This document shows, piece after piece, positions 20,195 through 43,300 of a stretch of DNA of 64,000 nt. Both the position numbers and the translations under genes were made by a program. Each line of letters opens with the position of its first letter. Position 1 is the first letter of the stretch. The notes beneath the pieces are model-generated. The model did no database searches. It was not told the origin of the DNA and saw only the letters and a program-made list of their open reading frames with translations. The stretch spans positions 124,001 to 188,000 of the forward strand of contig JAYKXP010000095.1 of the NCBI GenBank assembly GCA_037176845.1, written 5' to 3'. This DNA is from Paramarasmius palmivorus. Taxonomy: Eukaryota > Basidiomycota > Agaricomycetes > Agaricales > Marasmiaceae.

Positions 20195-20611
20195 TGTTGA
20201 GATTATAGTAACGCCCGTAGTAGTCACTAGACTCCGAGGATGTAACTTATCTCCTATCCTGATATTAATGATTAATTAATATAGCTGCTCCGTAGTGTAC
20301 AACTCATGTAGAACACTCGTAGATATAATCGCTATTGGTAGCAGTAATATAGTACATGCAATATGGGCATGTTGAACTCCACAACATGCTGTTTACTTGT
20401 GGTATAGTCGTGTATATTCGATCTTACCACTCTTCTACTCTATGTCTTACTTTATGCGTACATAGTTGTATTTCCAGTATATAAACTGTAGTAGATACGC
20501 TCTGTGGACAATAAGACTTTCTGTCTATTCTCTGTGCTCTCTACCTCGTTAACTCTTCTCCACTTGGTAAGTGGTCATCACCTCACTCGCTACGCTGTTC
20601 CTGTTTCAACA
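20195..20611 (+). repeat. Copia 5' LTR
   Basis: 417 bases with 6-base inverted ends. TATA-like AGTATATAAACTG near 20475. Differs from the 3' LTR at two sites, both CG against CA. Confidence 0.95.
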
Positions 20612-20623
20612 GGTTATGGGCCC
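20612..20623 (+). promoter_or_regulatory. Copia primer binding site, half-tRNA-Met type
   Basis: GGTTATGGGCCC starts right after the LTR. Its complement contains CCATAACC, the anticodon loop region of a Met tRNA (anticodon CAU). Copia-type elements are known to prime from the anticodon side of a cleaved initiator tRNA. Confidence 0.65.
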
Positions 20624-20868
20624 CGCGATTCGTTCACGGTGATGACCGTCCCGTTGGACTGGTAGTGGTGGTGTAGGTTTTGGTAGTCGGTAACCAAAGG
20701 TAATCGCAAGGCTATTTCCGTTTGTGGGCGCTAAAATATATGCGCCCTAAACCCTGCTAACGTATGTAATTGTAAGGCCTATGGGAGCAAAGGATAAGGC
20801 TAGGCACTACTGTAAGTCCTAGACCGAACTCCTGCCACGCTTCGGCATGACCCCATTCGGCCCGCAAG

Positions 20869-22320: not shown

Positions 22321-22428
22321 CACAATTGACTTCAATATGCATACATCAAGTTAAATGCACAAGTATATGTGCAATATATGTTAACTATAAGCATAAAACT
22401 TGTCAGATACATATCTCAAGCTACAGTG

Positions 22429-23880
22429 ATTGGATTCCTTTCAACCCTGGACATATTCTTGACTGATTTTTCACCCTGAATTCGATTTTGAGGTTCCCCA
22501 AGTCCCCAGATCAATCCCTGCAATACTACATTCATATTACATGTTTTCTGTAATTGTGCAAGAATTGATGCATCTGGCATATGGATTCCTGTCATGGGAT
22601 TCATGGAGGCAATTGATATTCCTGTTCTATGCATAGTGAACGGTCTCTCATTCATTTTTGGTGATTTTAGGAGCAATCCCCATGCTCCAGTACAAAAAAA
22701 CCCCTAAAAATGCGATTTTTTATGTATTTTTTATGTAGCAACATACAGATGTATTCAAAAAATGTCCTTTCATGGTAGGAAAGTGTATTTTGGGTGCCTG
22801 AACTCGATTCTGAACTCCCCTTGGTGCTGGGATGCTTCCCTGAGGTGCTATTCATGTATTACTGCCTGTGTTACATAACTGTACAATACATTGGATTGAA
22901 CAAGGTGTTGCACATACAGGAGTGCTTGGGCAAGTATATATTCATCATCTATACACCCTAGAGTGGGTTATGAACAAGAATTAGCCCATCCCAATCATTC
23001 CCTGTGGTATAGTATTACCAATGTCCAAAAAAAGCGGATTTAGCTTTAATAAATCTGGAAAAATAGGCAGCTCTCCAGGATTGTAAACCAAGCAAGGGGA
23101 CATATATATCATCTCTGATTTACAATATCTAAGCCCCAGCTGCACTACATCCCATCCTGTAATTTTATTCCCCTAATTTCGGAGATTTTCAGTATTTTTG
23201 ATATTTAAGCACCATTATCCAACTAATCTATGTACTATTGGGTGTCCCCAGGCTTGTATTTGATGTATCTAGGTCCTCCAACTTACCCCATGTCAATATC
23301 TGGCCTGTAGCCCAAGATCCAACAGGCCATTTTCCTGAATTACCATGTTTGGGCTGCTTTTTTTGCATTCCCCTGCCCCCCAATTGCAGGGGCATGCTTT
23401 TAGAACATATTGGAACATATTCCATCAAAAATGCGATTTTTATAGCCCCCCTGCATGCCCCAATAGCCCCCCAGTGCATTGATTCCAGGTGGAAAATGAT
23501 GAGGTAAGGTCACCTTCCATTTTGGGAAGCCAAAAGCGGAGTAGGGAGGCACCCAGATGATGTCAGGAGGTGTGGGAATAATTTTTCCGCAAAAAAAGCG
23601 CCCAAAAAGCGCACTGTTACATCATGGAAAGAGCACCTTCCATTTTGGGATGCCAAAAGCGGTGTGGGAACATCTCCAGATCTCAAAAAAGCGGCCTGTT
23701 TCCTTTCCAGAAGGTGTGGGAATGATCCTTCCCAATTTAGAAGCACCCAAAGCGGACAGTACCTCTTATCTGCCTTGATTACTTGTCCTCTACTTTTGTT
23801 AAAGTAGTTGTCCGCTACATTTGCAAAAGTCGTTCTGATAACTGTCAAGCACTATTGTTGAAGTATGGCTACATCTGGTG
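22429..23880 (-). repeat. Right arm of the palindromic element
   Basis: Mirror of the left arm. Near the loop the two arms differ, for example GGGAAACC against GGGGAACC and GGATGAA against GGGTGAA, which shows they are separate sequences and not one read folded back. Confidence 0.8.
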
Positions 23881-24364
23881 CCGCAAGGGTGTAGAGGGCA
23901 TGTTTTAGCCTGTCCAGGCAATATCCCGGTAACCCCGGTGAGCCATGAGGTGATAGAAGTCGGCACTCCTTGGGTCCCCCGTAGAAATACGACCCCCGCG
24001 GAAAGGTTAAGTCCCTTTCACGTGTAGTACGCCAGGATGACAGGCACTTCATTGTGCTAGCCATTCTGAGACTCTGGCCACGCTGGCTCCCTTGATCAGC
24101 GCCCGGACACTGTCTTTCGCAGAAGCACTTTCTTAATTACCTCGCGGTGACATTCTTTTATTAGATAGTCTTTTTATGTACAAATAAAGCTAGTCCGGGC
24201 GGAAGAGGACCGGATAGCCATAGGAGAAGGGAATACACCACTTTTACTGGTTATTAACACTGGGTCACATTGCTGGAATGAACGTGGCAACCATGACTTG
24301 CTGAGAAAGGATAACTGACTCGCTTGTTGTAGTAAACCACCGGAATTAGTTACTCCATTCTACA

Positions 24365-25013
24365 ATGTCTTCTGATAAATCCTCCAGTCTTCTTGCTTCT
24401 GTTCCCTTTTTGAGTTCCGAAAACTGGGACCAATGGGATACTTGCATTGCGGGCTATGCCCGATTTACAAAGATCTACAAGGTCTTTTACACTGATAAGC
24501 CCGCCAACATAACTGATAAAGACGGTGCCATCATAAACCAAGATAAAATTAATGATTGGGATGACATGAACATGCAGGCCCTTGGTCTCATTATTCTTCG
24601 CATCCCGACTTCAATGCATTACTTGGTTTCGAAATGCAAGAAAGCCTCAGAAGCATACGACATCCTAAAGGAGAAATTCGGTACACCAGGTCCTGCCGGT
24701 ATCTTTACCGATTTTAAAGATGCCATTCATTTTCAGTTGTCTGATAACGTTGATCCCACGCCTGCTATGACGTCTCTTCAATCTCTTTTTAATAAGCTAG
24801 ATAATCTCAGTTTGAAGTTGTCAGAGTCGGTTAAATGCATGATTTTGCTTGCCGCTTTGCCAAAATCCTGGGAAAATCTTTCGGCTTTGATCCTCGCTAA
24901 TAAGACTTTGGATACCATTAGATTGGATGCCATCGTCGGGATCATTAGAGAAGAATATCAACGACGTCATGGTAATGCATCGGGTTTAGCCAGTCGCATC
25001 AGTGGAGTTAAGC
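24365..25013 (+). pseudogene. gag: Copia gag, 5' part, cut by the KDZ element
   Basis: Starts at ATG 24365 (MSSDKSSSLL). Contains the copia-type gag core: LSSENWDQWDTCIAGYARF, LGLIILRIPTSMHYLVS, AYDILKEKFG, MTSLQSLFNKLDNLSLK and LLAALPKSWENLSALIL. The last codons before the insert are SGVK; the duplicated GAGTTAAGC is repeated at 40376-40384, where GVK/RKPNNPNWSNQ resumes. The restored gag shows no CCHC zinc knuckle; a Lys-rich stretch stands in its place. Gag coats the particle. Confidence 0.85.
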
Positions 25014-25026
25014 ATCCGTACTCACA

Positions 25027-25311
25027 CCCTTTTTTAATTAAACTCCGACAATCCTCGGACACCATTTTTGCATTAAACATCGAAGTATCTACGTACATAG
25101 TTGTTTTGTAAAAATGAGCTAGGATACATTATGCAGCCCCAAATGCAGTTAGGAGCCCACAAAACGTCCCCCGCAGAACACAGCTTTTAAAAAAACATTT
25201 AAAAACCATTTTGAAAACATGGAGCGTAGAAATGTTGAACGAGCTGTATTGGGCAACCAAGAACGATTTTTACAAAACGTTTTTAAAAACATTTTTCAAA
25301 AGTGGATAGAT
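25027..25311 (+). repeat. KDZ left terminal inverted repeat
   Basis: 285 bases, the reverse complement of 40078-40362 but for one CG/CA site. AT-rich inner part with AAAACGTTTTTAAAAAC. The truncated copia frame runs into it by chance and stops at 25111. Confidence 0.95.
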
Positions 25312-25337
25312 AATGGAAGGTGTAGGAAGAAACCATG

Positions 25338-28300
25338 CTATGCACCGTACTCACTGTCAATAGCGTACTCACTATCATGCCCATGCTCCTCCACAGCCTC
25401 ATCAAGCGATTCTTCATCCCCTTCCTCTTCCTCTTCCTCTTCCTCTTCCTCTTCCTCTTCTCCTTTCTCCACCCTGCTCACCATTCCCCACATTGACCCA
25501 AAAGCGGCTGCTAACTCGCGATACATAGCTGCCTGTCGATGGGCATAAGCACTGGAACCTTCTGCATGAATGCCAGAAAGGCCTGTGCACTTGGAACGGG
25601 TGTCCCACAGAGAAGCATTCCACTGCAGGGTTACCAGCGTTCTTCGCATTTCTTCATAAATCAACCCAACCTCCTCGCTCCATCGCCGATATCGCGCATA
25701 CGTTTTGGCCCATTCCACACGGATACCTGGGTACTAATCAGCTACGAAGGGTGCTTTAAAGAAATGTGAATGCTTACCGTTATACAAAGTTTCATCGGAC
25801 ACTTTGCCAGCGCGATCGCCAGCAAGCCATATCCATGACGTAGCTCGAAAGCCTTCGCCAGTTTTTGCTGCCATCTTATCTCGCTTTTTCCTCCACTGCT
25901 TTTCCGTCATCTGGGATGCCCTCACTGCATCATCCTCTAACTGTATGTCCTCATCATCATCCTCACCAGCATTTTCTTCCACATCTTCTTGCCTAGCCCA
26001 TATGTCCTTCGATATCTCCTCGGCCCGAAGCTTTCCTGTCTTTCGGGATCGTTTTCCAAGCTTCTTTCTAGCAATGCCAACGGCTTGGTCCTCCGGGTCT
26101 TCCATGCACCGAATGTCAGCCTGGTTTAGCTCTCTCCAGTGGGCTGCATCTGAGGAAAGCTGTCGGTACGCTGCCCAGGCATCCTGGTATCTTCGAGCAT
26201 GAAGCCTTATCTTGCTTTCATTTTGCTGCAGTAGATCGGATGATTTTCGAAGCTGGTCTTGATGCCGTGCCTGTGAAGAAATGTACGTTCGAAGCCTAGA
26301 CTTGATAAGCAGCTGGTTGCGAAGGTCCTCTAGGCTTTCTGAGCATTGTGCGTTTCGGAGGCGAAGTTCGATTTTAGCAAAGTCAGCTTTAGGGCATGAT
26401 GCAAGCTGCTCGGGTGTAAGGGAGGATGGAAGAAAGAGAGGAAGGTCTTCGGCATCTAGAGGGGATGTGTTTTCCAAGGCGGCTGAAATCCTAAGAGAAC
26501 CCACAACAGGCATAAAGTACGCCTGTTGGGCTTCGAAGCGGGCGATAAGCTTTTGAAGTTGGAGGCGCTTGTCCATGATGTCTGCAACTTGTTTTGCGGT
26601 GGAGCCTCGTTTCTTTAACATAACGGTCTCTCTGAGCTGACGTCTACGTAAATCAGCTGAATGTGAATCGTGAGTGAAGCAAACATACGCACTGTCTTTC
26701 TTCAACTTCAAGAGCTAGCAATACGAATGCTGATGGGCTTTTATCAGCTATGCCTGATAGCTCAGACAAGGTAACATTTGGCGTCTTCGAAAGCTCCTCT
26801 GCACCCAGCTGTGCACGAACTTCCTGTACAGTGATTCCTGGCATAGACTATCAGCATAACCCAGGCCATTCAATGAAAACGCCCATGCCTTCTTTCTTGT
26901 ATTCATAAGGGTTCGGCTTCGTGGGATCTTCTTCAAACTCCTCGACCATCTGCTGCCACTGGGATGCATGTGCCGCCTGGTTGAGGGTGTACAAGCGATA
27001 CATTGCCTCCTGCTTATCACGCCACTCCATCGCAAGCTTCAGTCTTCGAAGCAGAAGAGGACCTACAAAGCATGCTATGAGGCTGTTATTTGGGAGAGAG
27101 AAATAAAGAGCAACACATACCTAACCCAAGTAGCTTTTGCCAATTCCAATACCCCCAATGATCATCAAGGGTATCGTGCCTTGAGCCAGGCCCCATTTCG
27201 GTGGTGCTGGTAGCGATTGGGCCCTGACCTGCCCAGTTCCTCTCCACACCCTCACCATCGGTTCGACCTACACCGGGAGCGTAGTTGAGCGAATACTTAA
27301 GCTGGCAATCCATCGTATGCCCGTACACGTGGAGCTTTGGAATGACAAATTGAAAATCTGGAATAGTTTTTGGCCTTTGCTCTTCAGGCAGCTGCAACAA
27401 TCGGTCTGTGAAGCGTCGGGAGTATTGACAGCATATGTCGTAGGAGAGGCATGTTTTGACACGGTAATCATGGTGGCCAAGAATGGAAGCGAGAACCCAG
27501 TCTACGTTGCAGTACCTTAAAAAGCTAGGTTAGCTATCAAACCTAACAGTTTGAAAAGAAATGAACGCACCTTTCTCCTTTCTGAAGGTCTCCAACCCCA
27601 TTAGGCTGTATGAACTCATGGCGAGCGCAACAGCCTAGCCCTACCCCGGATGTTGCATACGTACCTCTGCTATTCCTTGTGTTTGCATGATCCAATGCAG
27701 CAAGCCCAGAACAGGTGGACATCTGGTGAGATGGTCAGAGGAAGCGCGATGAAGAACCGTTGTAACGAACCTCGGTAGCACTAGTCATTTCCAATAGATA
27801 GCGACGATATGGCGCATCAGGCACCATATAAGACCAACCAGTACCAAAACCAGGGTCTAAAGCCTCGCTGGACACCATTTTACGCTTCAGCCTAAAACAG
27901 GCATCGACAGCGAGAAAGAGGGTATATATAAACCTGAAGGATTTTAGTAAACACGGTGCAGAAGCTACCCATGAATCGTACCTTGTCTTCGGAGTAGCTT
28001 GCATCCAATTTGTGGGAAGATTAACATGCGGTCGAGGGCAGGCTGGGCATAAAACTGCAAGCTCTCCTGGCGTCGTTTGCTCAATTCCCCTAAGCCCATC
28101 ATTGCCCCTGCCACCTCGTTTTAACGACTTGAGGTGGCGCCATTCTCGTGCCACACGACGAAAGGAATCATATCGGCTCTATAAAACATTGTCAGCGTTT
28201 GGAATAAACAAGCCAACGTAGCCCATGCCTTGAAAGAGAAGCCGCCAGCATTGTTTGTGAGCTTTTCCAGCCCGCGATAATAGTCGTAACTGGTGATTTT

Positions 28301-29387
28301 TCCAACCAGAGTCATCATATGGAATTGCTCGAGCAGCCGAAATGTGAAGCACGTCTGAGGCACTTTGGCCGTCGCAGGATACCATTGGTAGCTTAAAAGC
28401 TGCTGGCGCATTTGAGAGAGGTTGCCAACTTCGCCACAGCCGCAGTATTGAACGCGTACACGGTGAAAACCATTGGTATGGAGAACGGTGAAGTTCTTTG
28501 GCACGTGGGTGTTTGGAGCAGGGCAGGAGATGTTCGAAAGATGACCGAGCTGAACTATGAGCCCAAGACTCATGAGGGATACGCATTCAAAGTAACGACC
28601 ATTCCACATCTAGTTATCCCATTAGCAAGAATACGATGGGCTGCAGCTCAAAACCTACCTCAACGGTATCCAAAGGGCGGTCACAGTGGAGTTCCAGAAT
28701 GCATTCTTTACAATAAAGCTGCATGGAAAAGCAGTCCTTGCATCGGTATTTTGGAGCGTGGCCTGCCTGGTTGCATCGGCGACAAGAGCTATCATAGATG
28801 CCGCCTCTTCCTTCGCCTATCATCAAAAGCTGGAGATACTCGCTGCGAACGCCTAGCCAATCCTCCAGGTATTGCTCCTGTTAGGCAGTCTGAATGAGCG
28901 TAGGCCTCTAAAGTTGATGGGAAGAACATACCTTCTTGCTTTGCTTTGAAGCATCGGGAACATGAGCAGGCTCACTGATTCCAGCCCAAGGCAAGTTTTC
29001 CTCGCTGCTAGCTTCGTCACTGCCATTGTCACTGCCAGAACTGCTGCCGCTAGAACTTTCGCTTGCTTCGCTGGCGCTATTTCCCTCCTCCCCATCGACA
29101 CTATCCCCATTGCTGCTGCCACCTTCATCACCGCCGCCACCAGTAGCCCCATCGACGGCCATGGACATAGATGCCTGCTTCATGGGAGTCGGCTCCCCCA
29201 AAGATATCGGCTTGGTGAGAACACGACGCCTATCTCCAGATAGAGAGGAAATGAAGGCTTGGCCTTTGGAGCGTTTGCGAGGTGCTTGCTGAAGCTCGTC
29301 ATTGGAGTCGGAGTCAGATGAAGCGGAGAAGTCCTGAGCACTGTACTGGGTAGGCGCACGCTGTTTCTGCCGGCTTCGTTTAGACAT
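25338..29387 (-). CDS. KDZ transposase with CxC2-like cysteine cluster
   Basis: Multi-exon gene starting at 29387 (MSKRSRQKQRAPTQY). Order: Ser/Asp-rich N-terminus; EQYLEDWLGVRSEYLQLL after an intron; a RING-like cysteine cluster (CRRCNQAGHAPKYRC, then CKDC and CKEC), the KDZ-associated CxC2 domain; ITSYDYYRGLEKLT; and the transposase core. Three acidic residues in the core fit the KDZ catalytic set: Asp in LFLAVDACFRLK, Asp in TCLSYDICCQY, and Glu in GRTDGEGVERNW, next to IPKLHVYGHTMDCQ. C-terminal exons give LSELSGIADKSPSAFVLLALEVEE, a long helical segment, LYNGIRVEWAKTYARYRRW and a poly-Glu tail from a TTCCTC repeat. I see no internal stop or shift when introns are removed, so it may be active. 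It cuts and rejoins the element ends in the nucleus. Confidence 0.9.
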
Positions 29388-30509
29388 GGGGTGTAAAGCT
29401 GGGGTGCGATAAAGGAGAACTGCTCCATTTTATAGGCCAAAAAAAACCAGGCGTAGTAAAAGTCTGCAAACGATAAACCTGGGAAAGCTGCTTCCTTCTC
29501 AATACCCACACAAACGTGTCCTCGGGTACATGGAGTGGCCAGCAGTGGATATGTGACATTCATAGGGCTGGTATATTCTCGTGCAATGACAGTGCTCTCA
29601 AACGCGTGAATGGCGAGGTCGTTGGGGTGAGAAATTGGTAAAAAGGAGCTATGTGGGGCCTCTGTGCGTGCAGCGTGACGATATTCATAGAGCGGCTATT
29701 TCTGAAGAACATGGAATGGGCGTTCCTGGTATATATAGTCGTTTCTAGAAACCATTGAGCGAAACGAAAAAGGGTGGGTCAACGGGCATACCTCAGAAAA
29801 AGCAATCAAGCATTGTCGTCGGTAAAAATCGACCGTCAACCATCTATATTGAGGTATTAGTACATCTGGATCACTTGAGAAAACATATAGAACACGTACC
29901 GAAGGCGTATCCGCACACTAAGAGTACACTTTTCGCGGGCGATGACGGGAGGAGAGAAAGCCGCGTGTGACATGCAGTCACATGTTACCTAGGTCACCTC
30001 CTTCAATGTTTGAACGCCGGATTGACGCCGGTCATTACAGAATTGACAATGTGTTTTCCGGCGACGTAGAGGTCTAAATACCTGTTTTCTAAGCTTCTCG
30101 ATTTCCGCCAGTAATGAAAAACAGAACCTCACAGCCTGATGAGAAACGATGGATATTGATGGATAAGTTGAGAAGCAAGTTGCGCTGTCGCCGTGATGAG
30201 AAACGATGGATATTGATCGATTTGAGAAGTTGCCTGTCTCTGATGAGAAACGATGGATATTGATGGACTTGGGTGCTTGATATCTATTGCCAATGAGAAA
30301 CAATGGATATTGGTGGGTGCAAGCCTGAGGCTACGATAGACGTTGCGCTTGCCACTGGGCCCAAAATAGCCTAAATAGGTTCGCTCCTTAATTGCTCCGG
30401 CTATAGGCGTCAAGTCCGTGCGTGTTAGGGCCTCGAATAGTATACAAGTAGCACGATACGCAAGCAAGAAGTGTAAAAAAGCTCTTTGAATGATAGGCAC
30501 AGCCGCTGC
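29388..30509. other. KDZ intergenic region with four spaced 27-base repeats
   Basis: No gene. Between the transposase start and the 3' end of the GTPase gene are four copies of a repeat with core ATGAGAAACGATGGATATTG, at 30137-30163, 30194-30220, 30241-30267 and 30291-30317 (the last with CG changed to CA). The starts are 47-57 bases apart. They could be protein-binding sites. The part 29390-29990 would contain the transposase promoter. Confidence 0.6.
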
Positions 30510-31357
30510 CTACATAATGAAGCACCTTCCACAATCCGTCGCCGTCTCTTCTTCTTCTATCTCAGCTTCCTGTGCAGCTCTCCTTTTTCGAACATCACTA
30601 ACCAGATGAGCGAAAGGGTACAGAACGTTTTGTGATGTTTTTGCAGATGCCTCGACGTGTTCACAACCATATCGCCGGGCTAAAGCAGCGCCTTCTGCTT
30701 CAGTCACCTCTCGTTGGAGCTTCCTGTCTATCTGGTTTCCAACCACAATACAAGGGGGAGAATTCTTCTTCACATCTTGAACTGCTTGCCAAAACTTCTC
30801 GATGCTGCGAAGGGAGCTTTCGGAAGTCACCGAATAGACGACCACAAACGCCTCGGCTCCTCTATAAGGCATGTGAGCAGCGTCGTCCTTATACAAGCGA
30901 GTCATGACCGTACCGTATCCATTGATTACGAAGAGTAGAGAATTCTTCTGTTACACTATTAGGACAATGGCAGCTCGAAATTAGACAGCCTACTCACCTT
31001 GCCCCGCAGTGTCAATTACCTCTACTGCACACATACGGTCTTCAACGACCAGCTGCCTCGAGAAGGCATCTTCAATGGTCGGGTCGTACGTCTTTGAACG
31101 ACATTAGATCACGACTGCCACTATGAAACACTGATACAGAAACACACCTCTATTACGATGTAAGACGGCGCCCTTGACTTAGAAACTTGACACCAAAAAG
31201 ATTGGATCAGGCCTTACCAATAAAACAGCCAAGGGCAAACTGCGAGCATCATGAGCAACCATTGTGGATGAACGATAGGCAAAGGTCTCACCTGTACAGC
31301 CAAGGCTGTTTTACCAACACCTCCATCACCCAACACGGCAATTCTACATCGATCCAT
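30510..31357 (-). CDS. Ras-superfamily small GTPase with CaaX end, KDZ cargo
   Basis: Spliced gene starting at 31357. Exon 1, MDRCRIAVLGDGGVGKTALAVQ in sequence, carries the G1 P-loop GDGGVGKT. Then YDPTIEDAF (switch I, G2), VEVIDTAGQG (G3, DTAGQ), FVVVYSVTSESSL, VVGNQIDR (G4, in place of the usual NKxD) and VEASAKT (G5). The end, CGRCFIM, is a CaaX box with Met, expected to be farnesylated, with a second Cys upstream for palmitate. Length (about 200 residues) fits Ras/Rap/Rheb-type proteins. The G4 motif has Gln for Lys, a known variation that can lower guanine specificity. It lies inside the transposon and faces the same way as the transposase. Why a transposon should keep a membrane signalling switch is unknown; it could be a captured host gene. 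Confidence 0.85.
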
Positions 31358-31779
31358 TTCAGCCTGAGAAGTGAGGTGTTAAATATAAGAGCCTGCGCTG
31401 AGAGGCTAGGATACAAAAAACGTTGATGTTGTGGTTCGGAGTTGATGAACGAAAGCGTTCATGTTAGGCTACTTAGCGATGTTTGCATTTGCTGAGGTAT
31501 ACGTAATGTTTGGCGAAAGCTTTTGTGGCAGAACGTGGTGAGAATAGGCTGAGCAGATATAGGTAAAGGTAAACAAAGCATAAGGTAGCAGTAACACAGG
31601 ATGCATTGGGTACGTGCAGAGAACCAAGTATGTGCAAAGAACCAAGTACGTGCGAGAACCAAGAAAAGAACATTCATAAAGGCCGCATGGTCATCGTTAC
31701 TAAACCAGCAGAATCGACGTAGAGGCTTTAGCAAGGGCATGTTAGAAAGCTTTTCAACTGAAGGCTGATGCACGCACCG

Positions 31780-32528
31780 TTAGTTGTCCGAGCTTGCCGA
31801 TGCATCATTAGATGACGGCTTGTCGTTGGCAGCTTTGTGACTGGACGCTGTGCTAATATCCGAGATGCTGCTTCCAAGAATAAGGCTGCGAGAGCGGCAG
31901 GCAGGTGAAGGCTTCGGGCGTATGTAGCGTCCCTTGTAGACGGTCAGAACCTAGGTAAACAATGAATGGATTTTTTCGTACCCTATATTGAGATATGCAC
32001 ATGAAGCCATCATCGCTGCCTAGCTCTACCCTTGGGGTGGATGGAGGGCCTCCGCTTTGTTCCCGAACCGAACTTGAAGGCTGGGAGAGCTCGGAAGGCA
32101 TGGTTAACGAGGACGCTGGTGCAACGTTCGGCTCCGAGCTTTGGGTATCTCGAGAAGGTTGCTGAACGTGAACCAAGCTTGCAGCTGGAATGTCTTCTTC
32201 GGGAAGCGTCTGTATTGCTGGTACAGCTGGCCGATGCCGCCTCACCCTTGTGATAGGATACACAGCTGAGATTGGAACCAAGCCATGGCCATTCCTGGTC
32301 TAATGAGATGAAAATTCAGTTGAAAGAGATAAGAGCTCGGATTGAAGCCGCACCTGACAAAATAGATACCTTCTTAGTTCTTCGGGAGATCTCATTTGAG
32401 ACTCGCTGGCAACGTTGATCATCGTAAGTAAGCCTAAGAATTGAATGATGCATAGAGTTTATTACTGACCCATGAAGTTTAAACCCAGAAATTTCTATAC
32501 CGTCGGGGTCGTTATCTGAGGTAGGCAT
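31780..32528 (-). CDS. Unknown protein, KDZ cargo
   Basis: Starts at 32528 (MPTSDNDPDGIEISGFKLHG). Exons then give a short ASESQMRSPEELRRYLFCQ segment, a HGLVPISAVYPITRVRRHRPAV segment, a Ser/Pro/Thr-rich linker, SDDGFMCISQYR, and after an intron with ends GTACGA and CTAG, VLTVYKGRYIRPKPSP with a Ser-rich tail ending SASSDN. About 200 residues. No domain recognised; the gene is supported by consistent splicing and by its place between two other element genes. The first intron choice is uncertain. Confidence 0.5.
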
Positions 32529-32800
32529 TCGCGTGGTGGTAAGGAGGAAGAGCTCGGCGTGGAAAAGTTTAACAAGAACGCTCCAAACTTAGGCGCCCAT
32601 GTTCGTTTCTTATCTGTCATAATCACTGCCCTGCGGTTCATCTCATTTCGCCATTGCCCCTCGTTCATTCACACCCTCCTTTTCTTCTTACTTGTCATCA
32701 AATACTATCAATTCTACCAGCTGTCCGAATGTTCTAGTCTACGCAGCATCAAGGTTGGGTATGTAAAGCGATGGCAGGTGCTAATGGGCTAATCTAATTT

Positions 32801-33835
32801 TCAACCAGTGAGGAAGTCCTCAAAGTCCGACCCATATTCTCCGACATACATGTCCAAAGCGCTGCCTGGGGCCAGCTTTGGCTCAGCAACGGAAGCAGAA
32901 GGCGCTGACGACATCGACGACGCCGACGGTACCGACGACATCGACGACTTCAACGACATCGACGGCTTCAACGACATCGACGGCTTCAGCGTAGGCCTCA
33001 GCAAAAGGCTCGATGAAGCAGCCTTAGCGCTATGAACTCGCCTTCGTTTCTGGGCAGTGAAGATTAGAAAAGATGCGTCGCGTTATGTCAAAAAATCACT
33101 TACGTTGGAGCGGGTTTGTTCCACCATTGCAAAGCCATCGGTGTTATTGGAAGAGGCGGGGGTAAAAGAAGTGAAGGTAGAGGAAACGGTAGCGGCAGGT
33201 TTATTGGAAGGGGCTGGTCGAGCACGCCTGAACCTGCGAGCAAAGCGTTTGAAATGCGTTGGAGAACGGGAGGTGAGTTCACTATAGGCCTTTCAGACGC
33301 TAAGTTCAGAAAAGGAGGCCACTGTAGCTTACCCGCAAAGTTTGAAAGAAACCATCTCAATATCATCGTCGTCCGGGTCAGGGTTTTTCTTGGATACCTT
33401 GACAATCTCAATCTCGTTGTCGAAAGACGTCAAATCAGCTTTTCCATCAACCTCGGCGTCAAAAGCCCTTCCTTCATCAACCTCGACATCGGAAGAAGCC
33501 ATTTCGCCACTATCTTCATCTTTCTGGGATGCTTCAGCAACCTCGGTCTCGCTGTCGGAAGATGCTGAATTGCTGGTAGCTTTTCCATCAACCTCGACGT
33601 CGGATGAGGCTCCTTCCTCGTTACTTTCAGAGGACGTTTCACGGTCGCTGTCGGAAGAGCCTCTCCTATCGTTGTCGAATCCAGCACGGTTGCTGCTCAA
33701 AGCATCGCTGTCCATTCCTGAATCGTCGTTGTCATCGAAGGATCGGTTCGATTGGGAGGTACGGGAGACGCGGGCGTAATCAAAACTCGACTCATTGACG
33801 TCGGACATGTCGACGTCCGAGCCGTGGTTGGGCAT
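32801..33835 (-). CDS. Unknown acidic low-complexity protein, KDZ cargo
   Basis: Likely start at 33835 (MPNHGSDVDMSDVNESS); an upstream Met at 33874 is possible. Very rich in Ser, Asp and Glu over the first 150 residues, with repeated SSDVEVDGK-like units, then DDDDIEMVSFKLCG, an intron, a basic HFKRFARRFRRARPAP patch, another intron, and a C-terminal repeat (LKPSMSLKPSMSLKSSMS) ending EYGSDFEDFLTG. No domain recognised. The acid-plus-basic layout is common in nuclear proteins, but that is inference. Confidence 0.5.
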
Positions 33836-34052
33836 TGGAAAGGAGGACAGCGGTGGTGGGATGGATATCAGCAATTAGGAAAGTCGGGAGTGATAGGAGA
33901 GGCTAAGAGGTGGCAGGGGGACTGCCCCACGGAAGGGCGTGGAAGGTCCAAGGAGGTAAGCGATCACGTTGTCGCTAATATTCCGTTAACGCGAGTCTCC
34001 CAGGCCTTCCTCTCCCCCACTTCCTTTCCCTGCCAGCGCGTTGGCCTCGACA

Positions 34053-36255
34053 ATGGCATCATCCCCTCGCGAAGGCGCCGACATAGCCATTCAAGGTACG
34101 GCTCTCGATCTTTGGCTTAATGCAGGTTTTTCAAACCCTCGTTTGCGATCTGGCGCCCATGCCCTCCAACACGCGCTACCTGTTCACGCTACCACCCAGT
34201 GCGCAAGTCCCTCCACAGACCGGCCTGCGGTGATGGCAACAGTGTAGCTCGCCACGTTGATACCTGCTCGTGCTATAACACAGCGCGCAAGTCCCTCCAC
34301 AGACCGGCCTGTAGTAATAGCAGCAGCGTATCACGTGGGCGTTAATTGGTGCAAGGTGCAGCCGTTGTTCTGGCGCATTTTGAGGCCTTCCTTTCTACTT
34401 TTGATACCTTTATCATGCTCTTAAGCTGATGCAGCTCTGAGCTTTAGATGTTCAAGTCCTTCGGTTTCCGGAATACGACGTCGAGAAAGCGCTGCGCCAA
34501 TACGGCGAACGTGCCCTTAGCGTGCAAAATGTTGGGCAACTTCCAGCGGATGTTCTGGAGCTGGATTATGAGGTGGTGGATGTTACCTCAGTGCCTGGTA
34601 TTCACGAAAGGCTACACGAGGTTTTGCAGTGCACAGCAGCCGACTCAACGACTCTTTCTGCCGGCAGCCCTTCGTTGCACGCTCGTTTTTCCTTGCCAAC
34701 AAGCTTGTTGAAACCGCCTTCAGCCGCACCCGCTTTCTCTCTGAACGCTGAAAAGCCTTCGTCTGCTTGCCTGCCGGCTTCTTCATCTACCGCTCCGCCT
34801 GCTTCACAAATTAGCTCACAAAATGCCTCGCCCCATAGGCCCCGTTCTTCTCCTCCAAAACCATCGAAAAGGCCACGCTACAAGCTATCTCCCGGAAAGC
34901 CAGGCAAAAAACTCAATGCCCGACAAATGCGAGCTTTACGAAAAACAGAGCTCGCCCGCAATAGGCGCCGTCAAACTGCGAAAGATCGCGATGCTCAAAG
35001 CAAGGTTGAGCCCCGAGTTATAGGCGTAGCCCAGTCAGCTGAGCCCGTTGTGGTTGGGGGGTTCAATGCTGCGAGCATGCCTTCTTCGGAGCCTGCATGG
35101 ATTGGTACGAAGGGGCTTCCAAAGAGCCGGCGGCCCTCAGCGTCAAAGCTGAGAGATCTTCGTTGGAATGGAAAGTAAGCGCCCAGCTGCCTGATGCCTA
35201 TCTCCTCGCTAACACGTCATCTCCATAGGGCAACAGTCGTGCTGTTGGACGCCTTAGATCGCATTTGGGCGGTTCTTGGCGCACCTCCACCGAAGGCAAA
35301 AGATTGGAAAAACCTCAACGATGGGCTTATGAGGGAGCTTGAGGAATACGATAGAAGCTCCCTGTTCAATGCAAGCGATATGTCTAATAGAAGAGCTGGC
35401 GGCGCGCATGGCCTTCGTAACGCTGGGGTTTCCCATGGCGGGGGACAGCCACGCCCAGGAAATATTGCGATACGTGGAATCAAAAACCAAGCGGCCATTA
35501 AGGCGTTTTCTACCAGCAGCTACTTAGGCCGACTCGTTGGTCACACCGGTCGTGAGAGGCTCTACTTCGTTTTATAGCAGCCCATGCTAACGCATTTTGC
35601 AGGCCTTTATGCTACCTTTGCTAATCGTTTAGCAGCCGAAAGCCGGAGGGTGCTGAAAGAGCTTGGCCAGAACATTGAAGGCCTTCAGTTTCCTTCTCAT
35701 TCCAACCCAGAAGGTGGATACTGGGCTGCGCGATGCATCAACTCTGCTGGCCTTCTCCAAACAGCAGCAGTTTGCACCCTGCCTCATACTGATTTGGAAA
35801 ACTGGGCCCCAGGATGGTGCTGCGTAACGGCGATCGGAGACTATGACCCAGATAAAGGTGGCCACCTCATTCTTTGGAATGTTGGCCTTCGAATCAGATT
35901 TCCACCAGGGTGCAGCATTCTGTTTCCTTCAGCCGTCATAACCCACTCCAACACCCCTATTCAGCAAGGAGAAAGAAGGTACTCTATCGTAGAGTTTTCT
36001 GCAGGGGGCTTGTTCCGATGGGTGTATAATGGGTTTCGGACGGATGAGGAGCTTTTGGCAAGCCTCAACGAAGATGGCCTAAGGAAGTGGAGTTTGGATA
36101 AGGCCACCAGGTGGAAGAAGGAGGTTAGGATGTATACCAAGTGGTATGAGCTGGAGCGTGGGGATTACAGGGGGGTGGTGCTGGAGGAAGAAAGTGATCT
36201 TTCGGAGCTTTCAGAGCTGGAAGATGACCGTCCCACAAAGAAACAGAGGATATAG
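34053..36255 (+). CDS. TET/JBP family 2-oxoglutarate/Fe(II) dioxygenase
   Basis: Four exons, 34053-34095, 34448-35174, 35229-35551 and 35603-36255, give 581 residues in frame. N-terminal DIAIQDVQVLRFPEYDVEKALR, a Ser/Pro linker, a basic LSPGKPGKKLNARQMRALRKTELARNRRRQ stretch (read from 34870), then the double-stranded beta-helix dioxygenase. Iron ligands fit His426 and Asp428 (PHTDLENW) and His479 (VITHSNTP), with Arg489 or Arg490 for 2-oxoglutarate (GERRYSIVEF). TET/JBP enzymes oxidise 5-methylcytosine or thymine in DNA. In basidiomycetes these genes are known to travel with KDZ transposases, as here. Intron 1 is unusually long (352 bases) and holds a direct repeat. No lesion seen. Confidence 0.9.
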
Positions 36256-36360
36256 AGCATTTTTGAAAGCTTTATCTGCCTGTATATTTCGTTAAGCTTG
36301 GTCTTTTTCTTCGTTTGTTTTTTTTTCAAAAATAGATAGCTCTAATTTACAAAGAGTTTC

Positions 36361-39300
36361 ATGCCCTTTGTACAAACTACTTCTAGTACCCCCATAAAGA
36401 ACGTATTTAGCCGAAATGGTTTGAAGCCCAAAGGCTCACCTCCGAATCCTAAACCGGAACTACCACCTCCGAAATTATACTCCGTAACTGCCACGTCCAC
36501 ACACCCAAACATCCAAGCCCACTATCTGGCCATTCCTTCTTGTCATCCACCTATTATGGGTAGAACTGCTTCCAAGGGAAAGGGGCATGCTTCATCCTCT
36601 AAGGCTTCTCACCGTCGTACCACTAGCGATGGGGCTGTAAAGAGGAGCCATAAGGCAGCTGCCAAACGTAGCGTCTCAGATGGCGCGCTCCAGCAGCCAG
36701 CCATACTTCAGCAGCCGGTCATACTTCAGCAACCAGGCGTACCTCAGCAGGATGCTCCTCAGGAGGTGGCCGTGTTGAAAAAGCGAGGTCGAAGATCGGA
36801 CTGGCCAGATGAAGAGCTAGCGTTCTTCCAAAGCTGGCTCCCTATCTATGTCGAGACAACAGGTAGCAGGGATCCATTCTGGGTGGCGTTCTTTGCTGCA
36901 TTCTTCGAACATTTTCCGAAGTACAAGAACAAGCTAGCCAATGCTGGCTTTTCAGAGCCTGCCGCTGCTATCCAGAGCATGGCATCCTCCACCTCCTCTT
37001 CAAGCACGCCTCAGGCAGCATCTACCGGTGGTGTTCAGGGTACCGAAACCTCTGGCGACCAAGCTGGCGAAGGCGAACGTGAAGGTGCAGGTGATGCAGG
37101 CACGAACGGCAAAGGTGATGCAGGCACGAACGGCGAAGGTGATGCAGGTACGAACGGTGAAGGTGATGCAGGTACGAACGGTGAAGGTGAAGGTGAAGGT
37201 ACAGATAAGGTCGCCACCAAGAAATCGATTGAGGACCTGACCTGGGAAGAACTGGAAAAGGTATGCCGTGTGACGTGTCAGCCAAATAGACATGTATAGC
37301 TGACTCTAAACCCACAGAAGTCGAGAAACTGGTTCTACAACCATAGAAACGATAAGAAGAAGGCCGTTGCGTGGCAGCCGTGGATCAAAGAGAAGCTGTC
37401 CAGGCCCCAGCAGCGTGTCGTTCGCATTCCGGCCCATAAGCTTTACATGTCAATGCCTGAGCATGCTCCAAAGGTCGAGGCAGAGCTCAAACGGCGGTTT
37501 ACTGAGAACCTGGGCTCCGACAGCGATGATTCCGATGATTCCGATGATGAGTCTGAGGATGGGAGCGACGAGGAGATGGATGTAGGGCGCTTGATGGAGG
37601 ATTGGGGTTCCCTCACTGTTCGACAGAGAAGAAATGCCCTGCAAACACATGGCATGGCTCTTCGGTGTGCTTTAGCCAAGCAACTGTTCGACGGCGAGCC
37701 TGAAGAGCTTCGTCAGGAGGTTAAAACAGTAAACGAGTCAGCTTACATGTCGAAGAAGGCCCAGGAAAGGGCTAGCAAATCCGTGAACCCAAAGGTTGTT
37801 GCCTCCGCGACATCTGATTCCAAGGACCTAGTAACGCTGTAGGTGTTAGCTTTTTCAACAGCCATACTCTTAGGCTAACAAGCTCATACAGGCGACAAGA
37901 AAACATGGTCCCCATTACACAGACGTGGGCAGATGAGGTGTCGGCTGCATCAGGCATGCATGTGTCGGTGTTTTTCGGAAAGCCTCCTGCCCAGGCAGGA
38001 GAGAAATACATTATTGAGTCGTGAGTGATAGCATGTCCATTGCCAGTAACCTTAATGACCATGCGTTAGCGTACATGCAGGAACGAATAAAGCGGGAAAG
38101 ACCTGGGATAAACATGACCGTGAGAGGGTGAAGAAGGCTACGAAGTGCTTCTTCTCCTTCCTCGAGTCCTGCTCTGGTGCCGAAACCGCTGGGCCTAAAT
38201 CGTTATCTCCTGAGAACCTGCCAAAGGAGGGCTCGTCGAATGGTGAGGATCAAAATAAAGAGAAGAAAAAAAGTAAGGGGAAGGGGAAGGGGAAGAAGAA
38301 GGAAAGAAGGCAAGGTGTGTTGATCAACAAACCTGACGTTTGACTGATTGCTGACCACCACGTTGATTGCACGTTGCAGATCATGTATCCGGTTCTTCCG
38401 GCCCATCAATTCCGACTTTGGAAACGGCAAATAGCCCTTCTTTACAGCCGTCGTCACCTACCGAGGTTTCGACTCAGCCTACTAGGGCACAGGATCCCTC
38501 TGGGTCTACGCATGTCTTACCTCAGGCTATCATTGCAGCTGCGAAGGGTTGGTTTTCTTATCTTGGTATCTTCCGCCTCTTCAGCTGACGACCAATACAA
38601 TAGAACATGTTGCCACTCCAGAGGGAGGGCCTGATCGTAACCCTGCCAATCCTCCAGAACCAAAGGAGCGACCTCAGCCTATCAGAATGCCTTCAAAACC
38701 CAAGAAGATGAGCTTGAGGTTGAAGAAACGGCTTGTGCAGAGTAGCGAGGAAGAAGATGAAGGGCAAGATGACGAAGAAGATGGCCAAGATGACGAAGGC
38801 GAGCAGGAGAAGCAGCCAGTCATTCTTCAGGAAGCTCCGGCGCACAAATCCCCAACAGCTGGCTCTTTCTTCTCGTCTTTCAATCCCAAAGACCCGCAGG
38901 ACTTGTTTCTTGACGATTCTGCCAGTATGGCAGCCGTTGCTTGTCGCACAGACTGTCAAGCTACATCATCTGCGTCGAACATGCAGCCTCCTTCCCCAGA
39001 TTGCTCAGCCACCAGCTCTTCTCATGCAGATTCTGTCGACAATCCTTGTGGACAGCCTCCTTATATTCCGCAACCTATGGACATAGACGATGAGGAAGAT
39101 GCTGATGAACTACCGCCCCTAATCCTTGCTGCTCTTAAGCTGGTTCCAGATGGGGATGAGGGCGAATGGGCTGGCGAGGCCCTTGCAGTTCTCACATCCA
39201 GCGAGAGCATGGTTCAGCAACCTGTATGGCAACACATCGTTCATCAATTCATCAGCCTCCAGTCCATCTATTCGTTTACGAACATCTACCACCAGCGACT

Positions 39301-39847
39301 TCCAGGGAACCAAAGGCCATTGGTTTACAAGAAATGGTTCAAGGAAGGAAGGAAGATTGAGATGCCTTTACCTTTTCCCCCTGTTGACGAATTCTCCGAA
39401 GGCCTATGGAGCTGGTGGAAGTTACTGAACCCTGAATGGAGAGAACGTATAGGAGAGAGGCGGATGTCAAGGGTGCAGACGGGCGACTGGAGCGAGCTTC
39501 GGTATCCTGGCCAGAATGGGCTCCTGCTTCCAGTGATCGGTCTCAAATGGTGGTATCTTCAAGAGGAGAAAGAGGGAGGTTCTGCAGACTGGAAAGAGCT
39601 TGCGGAAGATGTGCTGTGGGTATTTGAGTCAATCATCAAGTGGGAGAAGGAGAATCCACAGCCTTTGCCCCCTCCACCGAGCCAGCGACCTGCCAGCAGT
39701 CGAGCACGAGATAGGCCCACAAGCACTGCACCTCCATCTACACGAAGCCAGAAGCCAAGGTCCTCCCAGCGAAAGCGTTCAGATTCTGGGCCATCTACTC
39801 AGGAGCCCAGTAAACGACCATTAAAGAAGGCTAGGCGAGAAGGCTAG
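36361..39847 (+). CDS. Large unknown KDZ-associated protein
   Basis: Starts at 36361 (MPFVQTTSS). Joining exons at GT-AG sites (near 37261-37317, 37840-37892, 38021-38069, 38314-38379 and 38570-38605) gives a continuous protein of roughly 1000 residues. Early part: basic Ser-rich region with two RRTTSDGAVKRS/KRSVSDGAL-like units. Then RSDWPDEELAFFQSWLPIY, FWVAFFAAFFEHFPKY, a Gly/Asn/Glu minisatellite region (four 24-base units, 37093-37188), and DLTWEELEKKSRNWFYNHRNDKK, a pattern often seen in basidiomycete proteins of unknown role. The C-terminal half is acidic, then has a globular part (AALKLVPDGDEGEWAGEAL, RLPGNQRPLVYKKWF, WWKLLNPEWRERIGERRM) and a basic Ser/Pro tail. Probably nuclear; function unknown. 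Could be two genes, but the splice joins are in frame throughout. Confidence 0.65.
37093..37188 (+). repeat. Coding minisatellite, four 24-base units
   Basis: Unit GATGCAGGTACGAACGGTGA plus AGGT, repeated four times and encoding DAGTNGEG. The first two units have CACGAACGGC, the last two TACGAACGGT, so copies 1-2 and 3-4 pair up. A multiple of three, it alters protein length only. Confidence 0.9.
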
Positions 39848-40077
39848 GTACGGCTTATTCTTTTTCCTTCATTCTACCACCTCACCCTTATTCTACCACT
39901 TGCAAGTGCGCTTTTATTCACGATCCTGCCCCCTTGCCATTATCCTCACTCAAACCTTTATTCTTGCCATTACCGCTCTTGTCTCTTTGCTCATCCTCAA
40001 CTTTATTTTCACTTGCACCTTGATCCATGCCCTCGCCTTTATTCTATTCACTCATTAATTAGCTTTGGTTCTATTAC

Positions 40078-40362
40078 ATCTATCCACTTTTGAAAAATGT
40101 TTTTAAAAACGTTTTGTAAAAATCGTTCTTGGTTGCCCAATACAGCTCGTTCAACATTTCTACGCTCCATGTTTTCAAAATGGTTTTTAAATGTTTTTTT
40201 AAAAGCTGTGTTCTGCGGGGGACATTTTGTGGGCTCCTAACTGCATTTGGGGCTGCATAATGTATCCTAGCTCATTTTTACAAAACAACTATGTACGTAG
40301 ATACTTCGATGTTTAATGCAAAAATGGTGTCCGAGGATTGTCGGAGTTTAATTAAAAAAGGG
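40078..40362 (-). repeat. KDZ right terminal inverted repeat
   Basis: 285 bases complementary to 25027-25311 with one mismatch (CA here, CG there). The bases 40363-40375 complete the element, followed by GAGTTAAGC and copia gag. Confidence 0.95.
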
Positions 40363-40375
40363 CGGTAGGGCGACT

Positions 40376-43300
40376 GAGTTAAGCGTAAACCGAATAACCC
40401 CAATTGGTCAAACCAAAAGAAGCCGAAGAACGGCGATAACGGCAAAGGCAAGTCTCCTGAATCTAATCAGAAGAAGGATGATCAGCCTACCGCCGGCGGC
40501 TCGGCTGAAGGGGGGGATTCGGAAAAGAAGAAAAAGTGCAAGAAGTCCAACGAAACTCAGGTTGAAGTTGCGACACTTGCTACCACTAATGCCTTGCCTA
40601 CTTCCACTCCTGCTCGCATCGGCTCTTACACTATCAACGATGATGGCTGGTTTGAAGAAGTTGAAATCATCAACGAAGGGACCGACGATGCTATGATCTT
40701 CTGGTACGATAAAATAAAACCTTCTTTTAATAAGTTTATTGATCACCTGCGACAGATTCCACGTGCATTCCGACACATATGTAGTTCTCACGCGTCTTCA
40801 TGTATGCCTGCCGAATATGTATCTATATCATGTCCACATGCCGAACAATATGAATCTGTCACGCTCAATATTCTTCAACCGTGTGAAACTGAGAATCATC
40901 CATGTCATCATCATGACGGACCGTTACAATATTGGGTCGCTGATTCGGGAGCTTCAATTCATGTTACTAGAAACATGAGCGACTTCTCGTCGTATGAACC
41001 CTTATCACGCCGAATCCCAGTAAATACGGCAAATGCTCAATCCATGGTCTATCTCGAAGGTAAAGGTACTGTTGTAATGCATCATGATAACCGGATAATC
41101 ACAATTGACCCTGTGTACTATCAACCACACTGCCACGACCGTCTACTGTCCACGGGATCGATTAACAAATTGGGTTATGTCACAACTAGTGATGACGTAC
41201 AAACTCAGATCAGATCTAAACGAGACCAATCTTTATTAATGAGTATGAAGCCTCTTATTCAAGGCGAAACTATTCATTGGCTCGAATCAGAAATTATACA
41301 TCCTGAAACGACTGATCTTCATAACCCACCATCCTTTAACCAAGTTACAGACACTTATACCTGGCACAACCAATTTGGTCATCTGTCTGATAAAGTATTT
41401 AGTTGTATTAAAGATTCTACCACGGGCTTTCCCGAAACTTTAATTAAGAATCAACCTGACGTCTGTGAAGGCTGTGCCCTTGGAAAGATGCATGGGAAAC
41501 CTCATCGATCCTCGGAGAAGCGAGCTTCGGCTCTGTTAGAATTGATTCATGCCGACCTGTTTGAACTACCCACGTTATCGTATTCTCGTAAGAAATACGT
41601 GGCAACGTTCTTAGATGATAATACCTCCTTTGTAGCCTCGTTCTTCTTAACAAAGAAATCACAAGCTTTTACTGAATTTCGCAACTATAAAAAGTTCGTC
41701 GAAAAACAGACTGGTCTAAAGATCAAGAAGCTTCGTGTGGATCGAGGAGGAGAATTTTCATCAACAGAGTTCATTAATTATTTGGGAGCACATGGCATCA
41801 TTCATGAAAGAACCGTTGCTACGATACATGAACAAAACGGCAGAGCGGAACGAATTCATTGAACGCTCAGTGACAAATCAGAGTGCATGCGCTTAATGGC
41901 TGGCTGCCCTGAGTCATGGTGGGAATTTTCATTTCACACCGCCATTCATGTTTATAACCGTACACCATTAAAACAGATCAATTACATGACGCCTGTAGAA
42001 GCCTTTTTAGGTAAAAAGCCTGATGTATCTTATTTCCGTACTTTCGGCTGCGGAGCTTACGTTCATATTCCAATTGAAAAACGGAAGAACAAGCTCGCCC
42101 CTAAGTCCGAATTAATGACTTTCATTGGCTATGAATCTGGTACCAAAGCTTATCGCTTTATGTGTTCAGACAATACTATCTTTATCGGTGAACATGGTTT
42201 CTTTTTAGAATCCACATTTCCCAGGAAGAAGTCCTCTCAAGAGCGTCCACTTCCTTCCATTCCTGAAGGTGATATACCCAAAGAGGAAATCCCTTCATTT
42301 GATGAACCGCAACCCGGCCCATCACACAGACCGCCAACTCCGTTTAACTTTGATCCACCCGGATCCGGAGATGTTGACTCTGATTCAGACTCCGATCATT
42401 CTGATCATCACGTTCCTCATCAGGAACCTCCACCTCATTTTAATCCACCACCTGCACGTCCTCCTACTCCACCTCAGCTGAATCCTTTTAGTTATAGGCC
42501 AGAGGATGTAGAAGAATGGAGACGTTTAAATCCTGGTCCTCATAATCGTCAAATGGCTCCAAGATATATTCCGGAAACGGGATCTTGGAAACGTCAGACA
42601 GGTCCGAAACCACACACACAATGTCTTCCTGTGCCGCCACGTGCGCCAAGAAACGCTGTACCTGGTCCCTCAACACCTAATGACGTTAATCCACGTGAAG
42701 AACCACGTGTTGATGCCCCTGTAGATGACGATATCGAAATGGATCCAGATGCAGATATGCGACGTCCTGAAAGTCCATTTGACCCGGATGATCGTATGGA
42801 TGACCCTGAAGCTACTTTATCTCAATTAGCTCAAGGAGGAGGAGAACCATTTCTATTGTTTTTAATGCAACAAGCTGACACTGTATCTAACAATCAATCC
42901 TTTAAAGAATGGAACTTCCGTGACATATTAAAGTTGCCGAAGGATCAATTTGATCAGTGGATGGCTAAATGCGAAGAAGAGATCACTGATCTCAAACGTA
43001 GAGGAGTCTTCGAAGAATGTGATCTGCCAAAAGGCAAAAAGGCAATCAAATGCCGATGGGTCTTTAATCAAAAGTCTGATGGTCGTAAACGATCTCGACT
43101 TGTTGCGAAAGGTTTTAGTCAACGAGAAGGTGTGGACTATAACGAACTGTTTTCCCCGGTTGTATGTTATGAAACCGTTAGATTACTCTTCGCACTTGCT
43201 GCTCTAGAAGATTGGAAAATCGAGGCAGTTGATGTAAAGACGGCATTTTTATATGGTGCCCTCGACGAAGAAATCTATATGGAACAGCCGGAAGGGTTTA

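What the first reader, a model, noticed from the sequence alone, without database searches (positions are those of the whole stretch)
25014..40375. Complete KDZ transposon carrying TET/JBP, a Ras GTPase and three unknown genes
Exact ends can be set: 285-bp inverted repeats with one mismatch and a GAGTTAAGC duplication whose removal restores the copia gag frame (GVK/RKPNNP). The transposase keeps its three acidic residues and the TET/JBP keeps its iron and 2-oxoglutarate ligands. KDZ-TET/JBP linkage is established for basidiomycetes; a bounded, apparently intact 15 kb copy showing the full cargo is valuable for defining the unit.
Basis: partly seen in the sequence, partly recalled or inferred. 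Interest (0 to 1): 0.9.

Follow-up and report, generated by a model that had tools for sequence, protein, structure and literature searches.

The report
Mushroom transposon carrying a Ras gene
A complete 15,364-base jumping gene in the mushroom Paramarasmius palmivorus carries, besides a predicted transposase and a likely DNA-modifying enzyme, a well-kept gene descended from the fungus's own Ras1 signalling switch, which would let the element interfere with its host's growth or mating signals.

Summary
The unit is real. Window 25013-40376 (15,364 bp) is one KDZ DNA transposon inside a copia retrotransposon: 285-bp inverted repeats (one mismatch), 5'-CA...TG-3' ends and a 7-bp target duplication (AGTTAAG), not 9 bp. 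Three uninterrupted copia copies show the empty site with exactly that overlap, a fourth with 6 bases. Three further copies with both ends carry the same four marker genes in the same order. The predicted transposase (1178 aa), Ras (189 aa) and dioxygenase (581 aa) have no internal stop. The host is Paramarasmius palmivorus. The surprise is Ras: it descends from the host's Ras1 gene, most simply by one capture with introns, including a 2-nt micro-exon. All 13 modelled element copies keep a CaaX anchor, 12 the effector loop TYDPTIED; the two closest intact pairs have dN/dS near 0.1. My paper searches showed no Ras-carrying transposon, but the founding KDZ paper was not readable. The TET/JBP label is weak: HxD...H...R is kept, but scores fall below the Pfam cut-off. 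Seven palindromes of 2.6-3.0 kb share the ends. How Ras helps the element is inferred: most likely by tuning host Ras1 signalling.

The parts
25006..25012 (.). target-site duplication AGTTAAG, left copy
   Evidence: empty sites
25013..40376 (.). whole KDZ transposon, 15,364 bp, ends 5'-CA...TG-3'
   Evidence: relatives
25013..25311 (+). left terminal inverted repeat (285-bp arm 25027-25311 plus 14 outer bases that differ from the right end)
25338..29387 (-). predicted KDZ transposase gene, 11 exons, 1178 aa, KDZ and CxC2 domains
30510..31357 (-). predicted Ras GTPase gene, 6 exons, 189 aa, ends in CaaX box CFIM
31148..31149 (-). 2-nt micro-exon (AG) of the Ras gene
31853..32588 (-). open stretches of an unknown gene, part conserved in C110 at 65% DNA identity (exon limits not set)
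32801..33874 (-). open stretches of a second unknown gene, acidic low-complexity protein, part conserved in C110 at 66% (exon limits not set)
34053..36255 (+). predicted 2OG-Fe(II) dioxygenase gene, 4 exons, 581 aa, TET/JBP-like with HxD...H...R
36556..37841 (+). ORF-B, two open exons, unknown protein; may belong to one gene with ORF-C
38486..39847 (+). ORF-C open frame, unknown protein with relatives in Moniliophthora perniciosa and 94 matches in this genome
40078..40376 (-). right terminal inverted repeat
40377..40383 (.). target-site duplication AGTTAAG, right copy

Best explanation
This is a complete 15,364-bp KDZ transposon with Kyakuja-like ends that carries a gene descended from its host's Ras1, and this Ras protein is predicted to meet the host's Ras effectors at the membrane and so likely to shift the host cell into a state that favours the element. 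Shown: the ends, the 7-bp duplication, the empty site, three further copies with both ends and the same four marker genes, the kinship to Ras1 with the same intron pattern, and purifying selection on Ras. Inferred: the KDZ protein cuts the element out and inserts it; the 2-oxoglutarate dioxygenase oxidises modified bases and keeps the element expressed; ORF-B and ORF-C assist; Ras is prenylated at its CaaX box and acts through the unchanged loop TYDPTIED on pathways that Ras1 controls.
For: Ends, TSD and empty site. Same unit in C267, C222 and C48. Host C5:127992 is 89% identical to Schizophyllum commune Ras1 and shares the element genes' exon pattern with the 2-nt micro-exon. Element and host-type Ras rows are split by one branch, support 95/90. 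CaaX in 13 of 13 element copies, TYDPTIED in 12 of 13. dN/dS 0.12 (C95-C110) and 0.10 (C358-C19). 13 of 19 Ras matches lie 2.7-5.2 kb from a dioxygenase match. Ras and dioxygenase distances correlate over 12 elements, r 0.70.
Against: No transcript, protein or phenotype was seen. Only 13 of 124 dioxygenase matches have a Ras match beside them, so Ras is not needed by KDZ elements in general; C155 keeps KDZ, dioxygenase and ORF-C without a Ras in the 2.4 kb read at that place. Two of 13 Ras copies (C117, C13b) look decayed, with dN/dS 0.23 and 0.43 against their nearest copies. The dioxygenase is below the Tet_JBP cut-off.
Confidence: 0.55

Rival explanations
1. Ras is a passenger: a captured gene that hitch-hikes in a KDZ transposon and does nothing for it.
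For: Many KDZ and dioxygenase matches have no Ras match nearby; two copies decay.
Against: dN/dS near 0.1 in the two closest intact pairs and the CaaX box in 13 of 13 copies behind a variable linker are not expected of a free passenger.
Confidence: 0.2
2. The element Ras is a decoy: it occupies effectors or regulators and lowers host Ras1 signalling, rather than adding to it.
For: The effector loop is kept while the G4 motif varies (NQID, NMAD, NQAD in 4 of 13 copies).
Against: The P-loop GDGGVGKT is kept in 11 of 13 and DTAGQ in 12 of 13 copies, as in an active switch.
Confidence: 0.15
3. Ras and the dioxygenase serve the host, and the copies are kept because the fungus uses them.
For: The C2 locus has Ras and dioxygenase matches without KDZ or ORF-C matches in the rows compared.
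Against: Ras distances follow those of the dioxygenase of the same element, and 9 of 19 Ras matches keep the KDZ-Ras-dioxygenase-ORF-C layout at close spacing or nearly so, as for element genes.
Confidence: 0.06
4. The two repeats belong to separate insertions and the genes between them are not one unit.
For: Same ends also flank short palindromes.
Against: Empty sites with the 7-bp overlap and the same gene order between the same ends in C267, C222 and C48.
Confidence: 0.01

Closest known systems
TET+ Kyakuja transposons of Agaricomycetes (Kojima 2025, PMC12730594; I read parts 1-3 of 7, the section on TET/JBP and silencing, figure legends and passages)
   Same: KDZ transposase, dioxygenase cargo, CA..TG termini, 7-bp TSDs
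   Different: The Laccaria Kyakuja families there have no TIRs, while this has 285-bp TIRs; its main text has no hit for Ras or GTPase; the dioxygenase here is below the Tet_JBP cut-off
KDZ elements of Marasmius oreades (PMC8290104; passages)
   Same: Same fungal family; KDZ elements whose TIR motif was characterised
   Different: Their TIR figure is in a supplement I could not read; Ras was not among the terms I looked up there
Zisupton
   Same: KDZ transposase, TIRs
   Different: 8-bp TSDs according to PMC12730594; 7 bp here
Schizophyllum commune Ras1 (Q9P8G0, P0162)
   Same: Orthologue of the host gene that is the likely source (host C5 gene 89% identical); same GTPase motifs and CaaX
   Different: A chromosomal single gene there; here descendants ride in transposons at about 60% identity to such host genes

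Membership tests
KDZ transposon superfamily | KDZ transposase domain PF18758 | tested here: met
   E 1e-60, profile 1-217 of 217, cut-off 26.6 bits, score 205.6
KDZ transposon superfamily | three catalytic acidic residues | tested here: inconclusive
   VDACF, SYDICC and GEGVERNW are present in the model; that these hold the catalytic residues is recalled, not tested
Kyakuja | 5'-CA..TG-3' termini | tested here: met
   11 of 11 copies compared; the copies were found by end patterns one base inside the terminus
Kyakuja | 7-bp TSD | tested here: met
   9 of 11 copies; empty sites
Kyakuja | no TIRs (as described for Kyakuja-1_LB and -2_LB) | tested here: not met
   285-bp TIRs; hence 'Kyakuja-like', filed only as KDZ
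Kyakuja | place in the transposase tree | not tested
   no Repbase reference sequences at hand
Zisupton | 8-bp TSD | tested here: not met
   7 bp is the longest repeat shared by the copies
TET/JBP dioxygenase | Pfam Tet_JBP above its cut-off | tested here: not met
   19.3-21.5 bits against 34.9; 2 of 13 aligned copies match at E<=0.01; no match over the cut-off in the genome, 7 candidates scored
TET/JBP dioxygenase | HxD...H iron ligands and arginine for 2-oxoglutarate | tested here: met
   H59, D61, H112, R123 invariant in 13 of 13; shared by the wider 2OG-Fe(II) superfamily
TET/JBP dioxygenase | fold like CcTET or NgTET; activity on 5mC | tested here: inconclusive
   model too poor to search with (mean pLDDT 34.8); no PDB sequence match at E<=10; activity not testable
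Ras family GTPase | G1-G5 motifs and Ras effector loop | tested here: met
   PF00071 E 8e-47; PDB R-Ras2 E 2.3e-41 over residues 2-166; G4 reads NQID instead of NKxD
Ras family GTPase | C-terminal CaaX box | tested here: met
   CFIM here; CaaX in 13 of 13 element copies
Ras family GTPase | GTP binding, prenylation, effector binding | not testable with these tools
   needs protein work

The most novel reading that the evidence does not exclude
A eukaryotic DNA transposon that parasitises its host's signal transduction: it captured the Ras1 switch once, diversified it across many copies, in some of them towards self-activation (loss of the NKxD lysine), and uses it to push the mycelium into the growth or mating state in which the element moves or spreads, alongside a private base-modifying dioxygenase.
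Probability: 0.3. Interest if true: 0.93.

Novelty: new variant of a known kind. Interest (0 to 1): 0.75.

Why it matters
KDZ transposons with a dioxygenase are thought to fight epigenetic silencing. A selected Ras with a membrane-anchor motif in the same unit suggests a second route, control of host cell state, that can be tested in laboratory mushrooms. One genome offers copies with Ras, without a detected Ras (C155) and with decaying Ras (C117, C13b), with defined ends and empty sites. It also warns that Ras copy number in a mushroom genome can reflect transposons, and that a 2-nt micro-exon probably misled the deposited gene models of element copies (P0001, P0002).

Tried and rejected
The 9-bp TSD was rejected by the register test over 11 copies (register 0: 9 exact; +1: 5; -1: 2; others 0) and by the empty sites. 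A frameshift in Ras was considered when exons 2 and 3 did not join in frame; a 2-nt exon between AG and GT explains it, found by script in 13 of 14 modelled loci; in C13b the exon-2 donor is lost. Protection of the element from CpG loss by its dioxygenase is not supported: its CpG ratio is 0.81, near the median 0.87 of 67 other fetched loci; the palindromes are the depleted ones (0.24-0.31, three read). Models of ORF-C (mean pLDDT 54.4) and of the dioxygenase (34.8) were too poor to search with. PDB sequence searches with the dioxygenase found nothing. PHROGs gave only weak 2OG oxygenase matches. Pfam found nothing at E<=0.05 for two frames in the C155 slot or for two unknown frames. Two protein searches with Ras (best 120 rows shown of 892 and of 4613) showed host-type Ras proteins and no row that I could call element-type outside this species; the capped lists do not show absence. 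The left-end pattern with two mismatches is noisy (28 matches against 15 for the reversed control); the right-end pattern is clean (19 against 1).

That no Ras-carrying transposon is in print rests on search listings and on a term search of the main text of PMC12730594. One search matched any paper with Ras or GTPase and was useless.
Full report
WHAT IS THERE. The window is C95:124001-188000 of a 68.3-Mb genome. Database proteins from this genome name the host as Paramarasmius palmivorus, Marasmiaceae: P0001 is identical to the element's Ras where aligned, and the contig lengths of P0002 (41,725) and P0121 (410,419) equal those of C267 and C48. Two 285-nt inverted arms, 25027-25311 and 40078-40362, differ at one base. 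The 14 bases outside each arm differ between left and right but each side is conserved: left ends read CA[TC]CCGTAC, right ends read inward CAG[TC]CG, in 11 of 11 copies. The copies were picked by end patterns, so part of this is by choice; that the two kinds pair up at 2.6-15.5 kb is not.

TARGET DUPLICATION AND EMPTY SITE. Counting the first C and last G as element, the flanks repeat exactly 7 bases in 9 of 11 copies; C267 and C1 show none. Independently, the left and right 300-bp flanks match five other copia places. In C77, C9 and C143 the two matches overlap by 7 bases, in C150 by 6, and C166 has a gap. This is direct evidence for one insertion with a 7-bp duplication.

GENES. The transposase model has 11 exons and 1178 aa with complete KDZ and CxC2 domains. 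The dioxygenase has 4 exons and 581 aa, Ras 6 exons and 189 aa. Open stretches of two more minus-strand genes and of ORF-B and ORF-C fill most of the rest; in the aligned parts ORF-B and ORF-C have no stop in C267, C110 or C222. ORF-C has relatives in Moniliophthora perniciosa. These are models from sequence; no RNA was seen.

THE UNIT IS SHARED. C267 (15.1 kb) matches along its length, about 64-72% DNA identity in the longer gene matches, same order. C222 (15.5 kb) and C48 (14.4 kb) have both ends and the KDZ, Ras, dioxygenase and ORF-C markers between them. In C110 about 9.7 kb is inserted within the transposase gene; in C238 no KDZ match was found and the contig ends at 51,169. The genome has at least 150 matches to this KDZ exon, 124 to the dioxygenase exon, 94 to ORF-C and 19 to Ras. 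Thirteen of the 19 lie 2.7-5.2 kb from a dioxygenase match, two more (C117, C157) 3.8 and 4.5 kb from a KDZ match, four (two on C5, C46, C26) near none of the rows compared. C2 departs from the layout: both genes on one strand, no KDZ or ORF-C beside them.

WHERE THE RAS CAME FROM. The gene at C5:127992 has the same exon pattern as the element genes and is 89% identical to S. commune Ras1. In a 26-row tree the 12 element rows and the 14 host-type rows (C5 plus 13 database rows that I chose from 120 listed) are separated by one branch, support 95/90; C13b was left out. One capture is the simplest reading, not proved: long branches make the inner order unsure. Shared introns, with the 2-nt exon, point to capture as genomic DNA rather than through mRNA.

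IS RAS KEPT? I could model 14 of 19 Ras loci: 13 in elements and C5. Thirteen of 13 element copies end in a CaaX box behind a variable linker; TYDPTIED is kept in 12, GDGGVGKT in 11, DTAGQ in 12 of 13. dN/dS is 0.10 (C358-C19), 0.12 (C95-C110), 0.23 (C222-C117) and 0.43 (C13a-C13b); the second members of the last two pairs look decayed. The other 87 of 91 pairs have dS of 1.6 or more; pN/pS over all pairs is 0.16-0.57. Ras and dioxygenase distances correlate over 12 elements (r 0.70, p 5e-5) and the nearest neighbour agrees in 10 of 12. Against a general need: in C155, which has KDZ, dioxygenase and ORF-C matches, the 2.4 kb read at the expected place has no credible Ras match but other open frames.

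HOW IT MAY WORK. Shown: anatomy, kinship, selection. Inferred: the KDZ protein moves the element; the dioxygenase oxidises a modified base; Ras is prenylated and meets Ras1 effectors. In S. commune a constitutively active ras1 strain showed down-regulation of a receptor-like gene, and the authors state that Ras activation follows pheromone binding (PMC8161036, one passage). In Marasmius oreades transposons moved in monokaryons but not during dikaryotic growth in nature (PMC9674265, passages; KDZ is not mentioned there). A transposon that shifts mating or growth state is thus plausible and untested. In 4 of 13 copies, this one included, the NKxD lysine is Q or M; from recall, changes at that residue speed nucleotide exchange.

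TET/JBP. The iron and 2-oxoglutarate ligand positions are invariant in 13 aligned copies, but the Tet_JBP profile scores 19-21 bits against 34.9, only 2 of the 13 match it at E<=0.01 while 6 match the general 2OG-FeII_Oxy_3 family, the genome search found no match over the cut-off, and no PDB chain matches the 13-row profile at E<=10. I therefore call it a 2OG-Fe(II) dioxygenase, TET/JBP-like; demethylation is an inference on an inference.

SHORT RELATIVES. Seven elements of 2.6-3.0 kb share both termini, six of them with exact 7-bp TSDs. Three read whole (C8, C291, C1) are near-perfect palindromes; the other four have paired inverted 600-bp matches at their two ends. None of the listed marker matches falls inside them. 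C8 has no DNA match to the 15-kb element beyond its ends. They look like foldback elements moved by the same transposase (inference).

VERDICT. A real, bounded transposon. KDZ with a dioxygenase is a known kind; a selected Ras1-derived GTPase as shared cargo is, as far as my searches reach, new.

Noticed in passing
window 31148-31149; Ras loci L049-L062 and the host gene L055 (C5:127992): A 2-nt micro-exon (AG, AA or GG between AG and GT) sits at the same place in 13 of 14 modelled Ras loci by script, host gene included. In most copies it completes a Glu codon. Deposited models P0001 and P0002 misread this place.
   Followed up: partly
L068 (C8:265007-268152), L085 (C291:17081-19965), L086 (C1:211536-214179): Short palindromic elements with the same CA..TG ends as the 15-kb element, strongly CpG-poor (0.24-0.31) where the autonomous element is at 0.81.
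   Followed up: partly
C257, C158, C265, C210, C169, C149 and others: The inner part of the C8 palindrome (query 291-600) recurs in 25 listed matches, often as inverted pairs, without the KDZ ends: a second, larger foldback family.
   Followed up: no
L084 (C155:90000-92400), minus strand: In an element with KDZ, dioxygenase and ORF-C but no detected Ras, two open frames of 229 and 239 codons without Pfam match occupy the Ras place: perhaps a swappable cargo slot.
   Followed up: partly
C2:796540 and C2:799210: Ras-like and dioxygenase matches 2.7 kb apart on the same strand, without KDZ or ORF-C matches beside them: a relic or a domesticated pair.
   Followed up: no
window 20001-24000: CpG ratio 0.44, the lowest of sixteen 4-kb steps of the window, next to the copia element.
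   Followed up: no
window 25013-25028 and 40361-40376: The outermost bases of the left and right ends differ from each other but each is conserved between copies, which suggests that the two ends are not equivalent to the transposase.
   Followed up: partly
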